From Streptococcus oralis (GTDB lineage Bacteria; Bacillota; Bacilli; Lactobacillales; Streptococcaceae), in the NCBI RefSeq assembly GCF_021497945.1, contig NZ_CP046524.1:1585501-1649500 (forward strand): a stretch of DNA of 64,000 bases. Reading direction: 5' to 3'. Every line of letters starts with the position of its first letter. Within the stretch, counting starts at the first letter, position 1. Below are positions 3,476 through 9,916 of the stretch, in pieces. A program made the position numbers and the translations under genes. The notes beneath the pieces were generated by a model that ran no database searches, had not been told where the DNA came from, and saw only the letters and a program-made list of their open reading frames with translations.

Positions 3476-6400
3476 TTATTCTTTTTTACTTTTAATAGCA
3501 AAGAGGGCGGCTGACAACGCTAGGCTGATTCCTGCTAGGAAGAGGGCTGTATCAGACTGGTCTTCTCCTGTTTCTGGGAGTGTCTTCTTGCTTTCTTCAT
3601 TTTTCAGAGTATCTTTGATTTCTGATGTCTTTGTATCAGCTAGTGGAACTGGTGTCAACTTATACTCTGGTTTCTCAACAGTTGGTGCTGGTTCATCACC
3701 TGCTGTACCTAGTGGACCTGTGTACTCTGGTTTTTCATGTACGGCTGGCTCAACTCCATTCACACCACCAGTGTATTCTGGAACCTCATTTACCAAGGCT
3801 TCAACCGCATTAACTCCACCCTTGAACTCAGGTAGGGCATGAACAGCCGCTTCTGCCGCATTAACACCGCCTTTGAACTCTGGTACTTCATGTACAGCCA
3901 CTTCTGCCGCATTGACACCGCCTTTGAACTCTGGTACTTCATGTGCAGCCGCTTCTGCCGCATTGACTCCTCCCTTAAATTCAGGAACTTCAAGAACTGG
4001 AGGTTGCTCTTCACCCTTGCTGCTTGTAGGAGCGTCTGGTTTAGCAGCCTTATCTTGTAATTGATTGAGATAGTCTGCGAAGTACTCGACCATTCTTTCA
4101 GTCAAGAGATGGTTATCCGTCGCATATTTCATGCTCGCCTGAACTCCAGCCACTTCCTCTTGATTTTCTTTGTCTGTCAATTTCTGCGCCTTAGCTAAAG
4201 CTGCTTCATAGCCTGACAAGTCAAGAGGTTTTTCTGCTACCTGTGGACGATTAAAGATAAGTTCTGCTGCAGATTGGTATTCATCTCCACCATCTCCGTA
4301 TGTCTTGGTACCAGTAAGGACAATCTTCTTAGCCTTGATTGTCTTACCAAAGTTAATATCTTTCGGCTTATTATTATCAGGCCAATCAGTTGCAGTGAAG
4401 GTGTGCTCCTTGCCAGACTCATCTGTTACAACCAGTTTCACATCTCTCAAGTTACCGTTTGAACCTGAACCACGTGGAACATAGCGAAGTCCTGTGATTT
4501 CAGTCGGTTCTTTCAAGACCATGGTTGCAGGCTTGCCTACATCTCCACCATTCCAAGATGTATGCCATAGGCTAGATACATTGCCATCAAAGGCATTCTC
4601 TAGACCTTCACCTGGTTGGGCAGGAGCATCCAAACTTTCAAAGTCTTCTGCTACCAAGGCTGTTTTCTTTTGAACCAGAGCATTCTTCAAGGCTTCAATC
4701 TTGGCAATCTCTGCACGCGCTTCTTCAACACTGATATCATCATCGGCCTGACTGAGGTTAAAGACCGCCTCTTTCAAAGCATCCATAGACTCTTTGGTGT
4801 AATTGGTCATGGCTACAGTTGGCAAGTAGTTCTTCAGAGCATTTTCTGTCAACATCTTACCTGTCAGGGTAATTTCTTCGATTTGAAGATTATCCATCAT
4901 GAAGTCGTTATAACCACGGAAGTTGGCATTTCCACCAGAATCACCACGAGTATTGCTTGCGTTACCTGTTGAGTAGATACCTACCCAAGTATCGCCTGTT
5001 TCTGCACCTGTCACGAGGAAGGTTGCCTTCTTGGCTTTCTTAGAATCCGTCCAAGTATTTGGCAACTCATGCATTTCCAAGTTGCTTGCTTGACTACCAC
5101 GACGACCTGACTGGAATTCTCCCTTACCGACTACAAAGGCATAGGTATTGTCAGAACCTGCTTCGTATTCAAAGGTTACACGATAGGTCTTACCTGCTTC
5201 AAAGCGGAAGTTTTGTGGGATAGTTTGGTAAACCAAGTTACGACGGCTAACCAGTCCATTTGTCTTCAATGACCAATTTCCATCGATAACATCATCGACT
5301 TTCTTACCATTCCAACCACGCTGTGTATATGGATCGTGTTTTTCAGACAAGTGAGTGCGATTGTCTTCGACACCTTCGACACCACCCACTACAAATGGGA
5401 AGATTCCTTGAGCTACATTTTCAAAGTCTTGTTTGAAGGTTCCTTGACCTGTATCATGCTTGTCTCCGTACATGCTTGAATTGTTTTCAAAGGTACGAAT
5501 TTCATCAAAGTAAGTTGCTTCAGCACCAGCTTCACGACTCAATGTCAAAGTAACATTTGATACGTCCGATCCAGTTGTAAAGAAGGCGTACATATTTTGG
5601 AAGTAACTTGTATCATCAACTGTAGCATTGTCACGACGATTGTTATGAGCATAAGCTTTGATATAGTTGAGAGCGAGTGACTTATTAGTATAAGTAGTCA
5701 CTTCTTTTTCACCAGTATTCACTGTGATACTTGCCTTAGCGTTACTACGGTTATCGACACCTACATAAACAGCATACTTGGTATTTGGTTTCAAGCCAGT
5801 CAGTTTCTGAGTAAGGCTGACCTTGCTCTTGTTTCCTTGGATACGAAGCATTTCATTTGCGCCCTGTGATTTGACAATTTCTGCCTTAGAAGCATCACCA
5901 GAAATAGTCCAGTGTTTCAAGGTTCCACTGTTAAATCCTTGGTCATAGATGTGCATGCCTTCGCTCCATGACATTTCAGGATTGGTTTGTTTTGAACGAT
6001 AGAGAACGTATGGTTGATTTGCTAGAAGATCTAGAGTAATCTTGCCGTCTTTTACAGTTAGTTCTTGCTCTTCTGTCTTACCTTGGTCAGTTAGCTTGTA
6101 AAGGTAAACCTTGCTATTTTCCCAATCGCTCGGAAGTGTCCAAGTTGTTGCACCGGCTTGCGTATTGAAGTAGTACATTTTTTCCTTATCAGCAGGAAGT
6201 TTCTTACCATTCGCATCCCAGTTCCAAGGAGTCAAGTAAGCTGAACCATCTTGGATAACACGTCCGTTGAGAGTTACTGTACGTTCGCGATATTGCGGAC
6301 TATTGACATCGTTTGACTTACGAGTCACAACAACCTTGTTACCTGCTGCATCGACTAGCTCAACCTTCATTTCTGGAGTCCATTTATAGGTGCTACCATT

Positions 6401-9400: not shown

Positions 9401-9916
9401 AAGGTCTTTCCCAATAACAATACCGCTACCCTCGCCAGATGGTGTCTTGATTTTAACAGTTGCTCCGTAGTTTAATTCCCCGTTAGTCGTTTTAGCTACA
9501 TCTTCTGGAACAAGTTTCCCAGTATCTTGAGCCAATTGATCCTTGTCAACTTCGCGTCCATTATCTTCAGCTTTCTCCAACTTATCTTCTAGTTCTTTTG
9601 GAAGATTGCTTGGTTTATCTGCTTTTTCTTTTTCAAGAGCTAACAATTCCTCTTCAGTCTTAGGTCCGTCAGTTATTTCATCAGAACCAGGATTCTGAGC
9701 AGCAGCTTTCTGATCAAAATCTTGCCCCTCATCACTAGCCCTCTTGTCCAAATCAGCCAGTTCGCTCGGTAAATTATTTGTTGAGCCAACAGTTGCTTGA
9801 TCAGCCAATACTGGGGCAGCAGCAAAGAAAGTTGCTCCAATCATAACCGAAGCTACTCCAAGTGTAAACTTACGAATACTGAACTTACAGCGTTTTTCAA
9901 AAAATCGTTTATCCAT
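3476..9916 (-). CDS. GH101 endo-alpha-N-acetylgalactosaminidase with an N-terminal trypsin/V8-like serine protease domain, sortase-anchored
   Basis: This 2146-residue surface protein releases Gal-beta1,3-GalNAc (core 1) O-glycans from Ser/Thr of mucin-type proteins. An FSIRKF signal lies at 12-17, the serine protease domain at about 145-350 (H178 in TVSH, D235 in NDLAL, S306 in GASGGG), and the GH101 lectin-like and catalytic region from about 385 onward, with nucleophile D1028 (in YVDVWG) and acid/base E1060 (in AIEWGHG). A discoidin-like domain spans about 1780-1920, five 17-residue repeats 1976-2060, and the sortase motif LPETG 2113-2117. Pneumococcal GH101 has its catalytic pair at D764/E796, so this protein carries exactly 264 more residues before the pair, about residues 99-362, corresponding to the protease segment. 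All residues needed for both activities are present. The combination is inferred to deglycosylate and cleave mucin-type proteins from one anchored molecule. Confidence 0.93.
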   Translation of the reverse strand: MDKRFFEKRCKFSIRKFTLGVASVMIGATFFAAAPVLADQATVGSTNNLPSELADLDKRASDEGQDFDQKAAAQNPGSDEITDGPKTEEELLALEKEKADKPSNLPKELEDKLEKAEDNGREVDKDQLAQDTGKLVPEDVAKTTNGELNYGATVKIKTPSGEGSGIVIGKDLVLTVSHNFIKDSQDGNIRKVVDNDQGDGDIYSISYPGMPDVKFGKKDVIHWDRGGYLKGFKNDLALVRLRTVLENTPVEVTKKPVVKKIGDKLHVFGYPEGKLKPIVNTTVDFAEPYGEGVQGIGYQGGKPGASGGGIFDTEGKLVGVHQNGVVGKRSGGILFSPAQLKWIQDHMQGISSVKPADLEEKEKPAEEKPKEDKPAAAKPETPKTVTPEWQTVANKEQQGTVTIREEKGVRYNQLSSTAQNDNAGKPALFEKQGLTVDANGNATVDLTFKEDSEKGKSRFGVFLKFKDTNNNVFVGYDSGGWFWEYKTPGNSTWYKGNRVAAPETGSINRLSITLKSDGQLNASNNDVNLFDTVTLPGAVNDNLKNEKKILLKAGTYGNDRTVVSVKTDNQEGVKADDTPVEKETGPEVDDSKVTYDTIQSKVLKAVIDQAFPRVKEYTLNGHTLPGQVQQFNQVFINNHRITPEVTYKKINETTAEYLMKLRDDAHLINAEMTVRLQVVDNQLHFDVTKIVNHNQVTPGQKIDDERKLLSTISFLGNALVSVSSDQAGAKFDGATMSNNTHVSGDDHIDVTNPMKDLAKGYMYGFVSTDKLAAGVWSNSQNSYGGGSNDWTRLTAYKETVGNANYVGIHSSEWQWEKAYKGIVFPEYTKELPSAKVVITEDANADNKVDWQDGAIAYRSIMNNPQGWEKVKDITAYRIAMNFGSQAQNPFLMTLDGIKKINLHTDGLGQGVLLKGYGSEGHDSGHLNYADIGKRIGGVEDFKTLIAKAKKYGAHLGIHVNASETYPESKYFNEKILRKNPDGSYSYGWNWLDQGINIDAAYDLAHGRLARWEDLKKKLGEGLDFIYVDVWGNGQSGDNGAWATHVLAKEINKQGWRFAIEWGHGGEYDSTFHHWAADLTYGGYTNKGINSAITRFIRNHQKDAWVGDYRSYGGAADYPLLGGYSMKDFEGWQGRSDYNGYVTNLFAHDLMTKYFQHFTVSKWENGTPVTMTDNGSTYKWTPEMKVELVDAAGNKVVVTRKSNDVNSPQYRERTVTLNGRVIQDGSAYLTPWNWDANGKKLPADKEKMYYFNTQAGATTWTLPSDWENSKVYLYKLTDQGKTEEQELTVKDGKITLDLLANQPYVLYRSKQTNPEMSWSEGMHIYDQGFNSGTLKHWTISGDASKAEIVKSQGANEMLRIQGNKSKVSLTQKLTGLKPNTKYAVYVGVDNRSNAKASITVNTGEKEVTTYTNKSLALNYIKAYAHNNRRDNATVDDTSYFQNMYAFFTTGSDVSNVTLTLSREAGAEATYFDEIRTFENNSSMYGDKHDTGQGTFKQDFENVAQGIFPFVVGGVEGVEDNRTHLSEKHDPYTQRGWNGKKVDDVIDGNWSLKTNGLVSRRNLVYQTIPQNFRFEAGKTYRVTFEYEAGSDNTYAFVVGKGEFQSGRRGSQASNLEMHELPNTWTDSKKAKKATFLVTGAETGDTWVGIYSTGNASNTRGDSGGNANFRGYNDFMMDNLQIEEITLTGKMLTENALKNYLPTVAMTNYTKESMDALKEAVFNLSQADDDISVEEARAEIAKIEALKNALVQKKTALVAEDFESLDAPAQPGEGLENAFDGNVSSLWHTSWNGGDVGKPATMVLKEPTEITGLRYVPRGSGSNGNLRDVKLVVTDESGKEHTFTATDWPDNNKPKDINFGKTIKAKKIVLTGTKTYGDGGDEYQSAAELIFNRPQVAEKPLDLSGYEAALAKAQKLTDKENQEEVAGVQASMKYATDNHLLTERMVEYFADYLNQLQDKAAKPDAPTSSKGEEQPPVLEVPEFKGGVNAAEAAAHEVPEFKGGVNAAEVAVHEVPEFKGGVNAAEAAVHALPEFKGGVNAVEALVNEVPEYTGGVNGVEPAVHEKPEYTGPLGTAGDEPAPTVEKPEYKLTPVPLADTKTSEIKDTLKNEESKKTLPETGEDQSDTALFLAGISLALSAALFAIKSKKE
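3737..3991 (-). repeat. Five tandem 51-bp repeats coding 17-residue wall-spanning units
   Basis: Five consecutive units of the form EVPEFKGGVNAAEAAxH, followed by a partial sixth (EKPEYTG), precede the LPETG anchor of the GH101 protein. The first three copies are nearly identical and the later copies diverge (EFKGG becomes EYTGG). The EKPEYTG form resembles repeats seen in other Mitis-group surface proteins. A stalk role is inferred. Confidence 0.85.

What the first reader, a model, noticed from the sequence alone, without database searches (positions are those of the whole stretch)
3476..9916. GH101 mucin glycosidase fused to a complete trypsin/V8-like serine protease domain
The residues H178, D235 and S306 form a full catalytic triad in a domain inserted before the GH101 lectin region. 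The GH101 pair is at D1028/E1060, exactly 264 residues later than D764/E796 of the pneumococcal enzyme, so the core is collinear and the difference is this segment. Removing O-glycans exposes mucin peptide backbone, so one wall-anchored molecule could strip and then cut mucin-type proteins. The sequence supports the architecture. The coupled activity is inference.
Basis: partly seen in the sequence, partly recalled or inferred. Interest (0 to 1): 0.78.

Follow-up and report, generated by a model that had tools for sequence, protein, structure and literature searches.

The report
Streptococcal glycosidase with V8-like protease domain
A wall-anchored oral-streptococcal enzyme that strips sugars from mucin-type proteins carries an intact-looking V8-like serine protease domain; the combination is real, common in its relatives and already in print, but the same protease module also sits on other sugar-stripping enzymes and is missing from the well-studied pneumococcal version.

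Summary
Confirmed: window 3476-9916 (-) encodes a 2146-aa YSIRK/LPETG protein with an S1-type serine protease domain (Trypsin_2; H178/D235/S306) N-terminal to a complete GH101 endo-alpha-GalNAcase (D1028/E1060). It is no one-off insertion: 65 of 94 GH101-bearing Streptococcus genomes have it, NCBI's endo_SpGH101 model spans it, and a 2025 paper reports an extra S1B peptidase domain in SpGH101 and ZmpA of commensals. The tree makes the pneumococcal-type enzyme the derived form: residues 99-363 are missing at a 9-bp repeat. Not found in print in nine searches: the same S1B module on GH29 fucosidases (62 genomes, this one included) and on tandem-protease proteins (20 genomes; 3 of 14 fetched carry a GH33 sialidase). 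It also sits on M26 IgA1-type proteases. Triad His/Asp (120 of 120) and Ser plus S1 His (121 of 121) are kept in every extracted copy with the column; dN/dS is about 0.05; the N-terminal cassette recombines as a unit against the GH101 core. Most likely a latent glutamyl-endopeptidase-type protease working beside glycan-stripping enzymes. Activity is not shown: the one solved close relative (Gemella M26 domain, 36% identical) was inactive with a blocked S1 pocket. 'Strip then cut' is plausible, unproven.

The parts
3476..9916 (-). GH101 ORF, 2146 aa, with S1B-type protease domain, wall-anchored
9797..9916 (-). YSIRK-type signal peptide region (residues 1-40)
   Evidence: PF04650 7-31, E 5.8e-12; TIGR01168
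9515..9796 (-). variable acidic N-terminal extension (residues 41-134), possible pro-segment (inference)
   Evidence: dN/dS 0.109 against 0.046 in the protease domain; conservation line
8867..9514 (-). S1B-type serine protease module (residues 135-350; conserved block starts LVPEDVAK at 135)
   Evidence: PF13365, 9ect E 3.5e-36, V8 match, model core blocks mostly 80-93 pLDDT
9383..9385 (-). H178, triad histidine
9212..9214 (-). D235, triad aspartate
8999..9001 (-). S306, triad serine
8954..8956 (-). H321, S1-pocket histidine (S306 + 15), kept in 121 of 121 extracted copies
8753..8866 (-). Glu/Pro-rich linker (residues 351-388); recombination breakpoint region
8828..9622 (-). segment (residues 99-363) absent from the pneumococcal-type GH101; 9-bp AAAGAAAAA at both edges
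8207..8752 (-). GH101 N-terminal domain
   Evidence: PF17995
7367..8125 (-). galactose-mutarotase-like domain
   Evidence: PF18080
6494..7366 (-). GH101 catalytic domain with D1028 (6833-6835) and E1060 (6737-6739)
   Evidence: PF12905 E 2.1e-121; 3ecq alignment
4913..5506 (-). GalBD-like domain
   Evidence: PF17974
4262..4612 (-). F5/8 type C domain
   Evidence: PF00754
3701..3802 (-). best SIALI-17 repeat stretch of four
   Evidence: NF043031
3566..3580 (-). LPETG sortase motif

Best explanation
The domain is a streptococcal S1B (V8/exfoliatin-like, glutamyl-endopeptidase-type) serine protease module placed at the outer end of a wall-anchored GH101 O-glycanase. Shown by sequence: complete triad and S1 His, strong purifying selection, the same module on GH101, GH29, GH33-containing and M26 proteins, and exchange of the signal-plus-protease cassette as a unit. 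Inferred: it is made latent, is switched on when its N-terminus is freed near residue 130-135 (as reported for the Bacillus glutamyl endopeptidase BGP in PMC11970125), and then cuts acidic sites in host glycoproteins that the neighbouring glycosidase strips, so that one anchored molecule opens and then trims O-glycosylated substrates. The pneumococcal-type enzyme lost the module by a short-repeat deletion.
For: His and Asp in 120 of 120 and Ser, oxyanion Gly and S1 His in 121 of 121 extracted copies (120 came from genomes, out of 174 domain matches; 41 of 62 GH29 copies and 12 of 40 tandem domains were not extracted). Only 18 of 211 columns are invariant over 119 copies and they include H178, D235, G304, S306, H321. 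Median pairwise dN/dS 0.046, like the GH101 accessory domains (0.033-0.061) and well below the linker (0.174). Partners act on host glycoproteins: GH101 in 65 genomes, GH29 in 62 (60 of 61 tested hits share the open frame with GH29; own genome by Pfam), tandem copies in 20 (3 of 14 fetched with GH33), M26 five copies. Profile match to V8 and other staphylococcal Glu-endopeptidases. A conserved block starts at L135, near the place of the V8 N-terminus.
Against: GhTrp, same triad, was inactive on chromogenic peptides and on an E. coli peptide library, and its loop 2 blocks S1 (PMC11970125). The residue five before the Ser (V8 Thr164, numbering recalled) is Gly in the window copy, in 26 of 63 GH101 copies and in 6 of 6 M26 copies, Ala in 14 of 14 first tandem domains. 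No activity, substrate or processing data exist for the GH101-borne domain. 41 of residues 100-149 have pLDDT under 50, the LVPEDVAK block among them. The M26 partner cuts a peptide, and 11 of 14 fetched tandem proteins have no GH33 match, so the partners are not all glycosidases.
Confidence: 0.42

Rival explanations
1. Processing protease: the domain cuts its own chain or neighbouring surface proteins, to release or mature the enzyme, and does not act on host proteins.
For: It is flanked by variable Glu/Asp-rich stretches (fraction 0.26-0.32 in residues 41-139 and 0.26 in 351-388); the PMC11970125 authors propose activation by N-terminal excision of GhTrp.
Against: No E-rich linker follows the GH29-borne domain in the seven copies printed; linkers are the fastest-evolving parts measured; [quoted passage not shown]
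Confidence: 0.22
2. Non-catalytic or permanently zymogen-like domain kept for binding or folding.
For: GhTrp inactivity and blocked S1 pocket; its authors do not rule out loss of protease function. The pneumococcal enzyme without the domain is a folded GH101 with solved structures.
Against: Triad and S1 His unchanged over five architectures with identity to the window copy down to 21%; a pure binder would be expected to lose some of them.
Confidence: 0.22
3. General surface protease of the CbpG kind whose fusion to glycosidases is only a way to reach the wall, with no coupling.
For: The module also occurs in tandem proteins without another catalytic domain in Pfam: L211 (LPXTG), L206 and L222 (choline-binding); Cbp33 in PMC12211801 is a choline-binding trypsin-like protein (passage).
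Against: By my count 127 of 153 protein loci with the module are GH101 (65) or GH29 (62) proteins.
Confidence: 0.12

Closest known systems
SpGH101 of S. pneumoniae (3ecq; NCBIfam NF040533)
   Same: Collinear GH101 core and wall anchoring; the pneumococcal-type L072 is 94% identical over window 364-2013
   Different: Lacks residues 99-363, i.e. the protease module
'SpGH101 and ZmpA ... [quoted passage not shown] 2 legend, passages seen)
   Same: Same architecture, already reported
   Different: The passages that I saw give no triad analysis, no deletion analysis and no mechanism; the words fucosidase, sialidase and neuraminidase do not occur in its main text
[quoted passage not shown] PMC11970125)
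   Same: Same S1B-like subfamily, triad, S1 His; 36% identical
   Different: Sits on M26; the Streptococcus M26 copies printed lack the conserved N-terminal block; reported inactive
S. aureus V8 glutamyl endopeptidase and exfoliative toxins (1wcz, 1agj)
   Same: Sequence family, triad, S1 His
   Different: Free secreted proteases without a glycosidase partner (recalled)
CbpG / Cbp33 choline-binding proteases
   Same: Streptococcal surface trypsin-like proteases (PMC8592123, PMC12211801, passages)
   Different: Choline-bound; neither was compared by sequence here

Membership tests
GH101 endo-alpha-N-acetylgalactosaminidase (SpGH101) | PF12905 and accessory GH101 domains over cut-off | tested here: met
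GH101 endo-alpha-N-acetylgalactosaminidase (SpGH101) | D764/E796 catalytic pair | tested here: met
   D1028/E1060 by alignment
GH101 endo-alpha-N-acetylgalactosaminidase (SpGH101) | NCBIfam endo_SpGH101 cut-off (2900 bits) | tested here: met
   4213 bits
GH101 endo-alpha-N-acetylgalactosaminidase (SpGH101) | release of core-1 disaccharide | not testable with these tools
   needs assay
S1B serine protease (V8/exfoliatin type) | trypsin-like domain over Pfam cut-off | tested here: met
   45.8 against 27.6 bits
S1B serine protease (V8/exfoliatin type) | His-Asp-Ser triad in order and context | tested here: met
S1B serine protease (V8/exfoliatin type) | S1 His 15 residues after the Ser | tested here: met
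   H321, aligned with the His of exfoliative toxin A; the tandem copy L211 aligns there with the V8 His
S1B serine protease (V8/exfoliatin type) | hydroxyl residue five before the Ser (V8 Thr164, numbering recalled) | tested here: not met
   Gly301 in the window; Ser in 37 of 63 GH101 copies and 21 of 21 GH29 copies, Thr in 14 of 14 second tandem domains, Gly in 6 of 6 M26
S1B serine protease (V8/exfoliatin type) | free mature N-terminus reaching the S1 pocket | tested here: inconclusive
   conserved block from 135, but it is in the low-confidence part of the model
S1B serine protease (V8/exfoliatin type) | triad geometry in a model | tested here: inconclusive
   model built, but no coordinates in the box and no fold search
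S1B serine protease (V8/exfoliatin type) | Glu-specific cleavage | not testable with these tools
   needs assay
M26 trypsin-like domain (GhTrp) | position N-terminal to an M26 metalloprotease | tested here: not met
   partner is GH101

The most novel reading that the evidence does not exclude
Mitis-group streptococci carry one exchangeable S1B protease cassette that is fused to a whole set of wall-anchored host-glycoprotein enzymes (O-glycanase, fucosidase, sialidase, IgA1-type protease), making a family of deglycosylate-then-proteolyse surface machines; the pneumococcal-type O-glycanase, the laboratory reference, has lost its half.
Probability: 0.35. Interest if true: 0.72.

Novelty: new member of a known kind. 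Interest (0 to 1): 0.45.

Why it matters
The GH101 structures of this subfamily in the PDB are of the pneumococcal form (3ecq, 5a55-5a5a), which turns out to be the cut-down one; 65 of the 94 Streptococcus GH101 loci examined carry a second active site for which I found no assay. The same module sits on several kinds of host-glycoprotein enzymes, so an assay of one domain would bear on all of them, and would show whether the Gemella domain's inactivity is general or due to a missing N-terminal activation.

Tried and rejected
Rejected: chance or a broken ORF (the window ORF has no stop; 62 GH101 ORFs, the window included, have the full-length domain). Rejected: a rare insertion in this strain (65 of 94). 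Rejected: a domain common in Lactobacillales (25 of 395 sampled genomes, all Streptococcus); among 398 sampled Bacilli, 16 genomes outside the genus have only weak hits, E 1e-6 to 1e-10. Rejected: MdpS as the same thing (TsaD-like, passages of PMC10830703); in the MdpS2 paper PMC12557822 the only 'serine protease' hit is in its reference list. The PADLOC hit (RT-Protease_XI, 16.7 bits) is read as the generic trypsin fold.

Led nowhere: triad geometry (no coordinates in the box; fold search not available); paper searches without a hit, whose three papers, not read, looked unrelated from the listing. Promoter matches in 3200-10300 are at the shuffled level (13 against 12.1).

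Full report
Observation. The ORF at 3476-9916 (-) is an intact 2146-aa protein. Pfam finds a YSIRK signal, Trypsin_2 (163-320), the GH101 domain set, F5/8C and the LPXTG anchor; NCBIfam adds SIALI-17 repeats and matches its endo_SpGH101 model over residues 1-1957 (model 1-1961 of 1962) in one stretch, protease included.

What the domain is. [quoted passage not shown] The histidine 15 residues after the catalytic serine, aligned with that of exfoliative toxin A, is present (H321). 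The residue five before the serine (V8 Thr164, recalled) is Gly here, Ser in 37 and Gly in 26 of 63 GH101 copies, Ser in 21 of 21 GH29 copies. AlphaFold2 on residues 100-350 gives a good core (most blocks 80-93) and an unconfident N-extension (41 of residues 100-149 under 50), mean 75.8, pTM 0.77.

Distribution. PF12905 is found in 94 of 284 Streptococcus genomes. I extracted all 94: 63 have the protease in the same ORF (one, L073, only its C-terminal part), 2 have it in a separate upstream ORF (L052, L075), 29 lack it. Records with close copies bear the names S. oralis, S. mitis, S. infantis, S. pseudopneumoniae and others; the window lies in a 1.94-Mb genome of the S. oralis/mitis group (inferred from these hits; its own record is unnamed).

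Direction of change. In the GH101-core tree the pneumococcal-type protein (L072, genome G157, near-identical to 3ecq in the printed alignment) is the only row without the domain inside a 58-row clade with 56 that have it and 1 split. 3ecq aligns to window residues 43-98 and then directly to 360-1831; L072 aligns to window 1-103 and again from 364 on, 94% identical over 364-2013. The joint carries the 9-bp string AAAGAAAAA present at both edges in the window. So the pneumococcal form is best read as a deletion product. For the deeper branches, most of which lack the domain, the tree needs at least four changes and I did not settle gain against loss.

Other partners. The protease profile hits 78 of 284 Streptococcus genomes at E <= 1e-8 (whose match list is cut); with 23 of these genomes relisted in full at 1e-5 and the match numbers of the other 55, I count 174 domain matches: GH101 in 65 genomes (66 pieces), GH29-type in 62, 40 domains in 20 tandem proteins, 5 M26 in 4 genomes, 1 with DUF5648. 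Of 61 GH29-type hits outside the own genome, 60 share the open frame with a GH29 domain; the other (G172) lies beside one. The own-genome copy is a GH29 protein by Pfam (L039). I fetched 14 of the 20 tandem proteins: 3 carry a GH33 sialidase (L208-L210), 9 others show an LPXTG motif and 2 have choline-binding repeats (L206, L222). All 5 M26 proteins carry both M26 domains. L235 has protease, GH29 and sialidase in one frame.

Selection and modularity. Over 121 extracted domains (120 from genomes, plus 9ect; L073 partial) His and Asp are present in 120 of 120 with the column, Ser and S1 His in 121 of 121; 41 GH29 and 12 tandem domains were not extracted. 18 of 211 columns are invariant over 119 rows and include all of these. 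Median pairwise dN/dS over 62 proteins, using pairs with dS 0.05-0.8 (422 for the protease): protease 0.046, GH101 catalytic 0.020, mutarotase-like 0.033, GH101_N 0.061, GalBD 0.057, linker 0.174, N-extension 0.109. In L108 against L088, residues 1-350 are 92-100% identical and the rest 42-84%; the window against L088 shows the reverse (46-76% before residue 400, 66-98% after). The signal-plus-protease cassette therefore exchanges against the core, with breakpoints in or near the linker.

Mechanism. Shown: an intact, selected active site at the N-terminal (outer) end of a wall-anchored O-glycanase, reused on other host-glycoprotein enzymes. Inferred: latency and N-terminal activation. V8 aligns with its chain residue 10 at window residue 139, so its N-terminus falls near residue 130, where the variable extension gives way to the conserved LVPEDVAK block; the four M26 copies printed lack this block, which could explain why GhTrp was inactive (PMC11970125, parts 1 and 2 of 3 read). 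Also inferred: host-directed cleavage after acidic residues, helped by glycan removal. GhTrp did not contribute to IgA1 cleavage (PMC9637739, passages).

Literature. PMC12211801 (passages) states in its Fig. 2 legend that SpGH101 and ZmpA of its commensal strains carry an extra S1B catalytic domain; it also describes Cbp33, a choline-binding protein with a trypsin-like domain. PMC6593409 (passage) mentions trypsin-like and G5 domains among S. pseudopneumoniae choline-binding proteins. PMC8592123 (passages) reviews CbpG. PMC11861894 (passages) on O-glycanases has no hit for trypsin. In PMC6722419 and PMC2828477 none of the terms tried occurs. I found no report of the GH29 or GH33 fusions or of the pneumococcal deletion in nine searches; most listed papers were not opened, and the library covers open-licence PMC only.

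Surroundings. The gene is flanked on its strand by terminator-like hairpins (10147-10183 and 3366-3389; 12 such matches in the region against 5.4 in shuffles), so it is probably a single transcript. Downstream on the same strand is a 2740-aa wall protein with GH20 and GH84 domains; upstream is a 660-aa ORF (10197-12179) that looks like a substrate-binding lipoprotein (sequence read, not scanned).

Verdict. Observation confirmed, interpretation partly supported, architecture already in print; the shared-module pattern and the pneumococcal loss are what is worth following.

Noticed in passing
window 1-3324 (-), continuing left; L246:1103-9325: Neighbouring 2740-aa wall protein combines GH20 and GH84 domains with five F5/8C stretches.
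   Followed up: partly
L039:1280-7699 (own genome): Second S1B-module protein of this genome: a wall-anchored GH29 fucosidase. GH29 copies printed share an 'NR-AIINGG' or 'NR-AIIKGG'-like stretch before the protease domain that resembles an S1 activation site (likeness recalled).
   Followed up: partly
L235:1422-9215: One frame carries protease, GH29 fucosidase and GH33-type sialidase.
   Followed up: partly
L218:1167-7664 (G157): The pneumococcal-type genome keeps the module on its ZmpA-type M26 protein although PMC11970125 says the S. pneumoniae IgA1 protease lacks it; may be strain-variable.
   Followed up: no
L104, L106, L107, L108, L110, L112, L113: Divergent GH101 cores under a signal-plus-protease cassette that groups with other species' copies: module exchange (identity profiles for L104, L108 and L113).
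   Followed up: partly
L219:2136-3548 (G257): Distant trypsin-like domain joined to DUF5648.
   Followed up: no
L052, L073, L075: Copies in which the protease and GH101 parts lie in different frames or the protease part is interrupted; described only.
   Followed up: no
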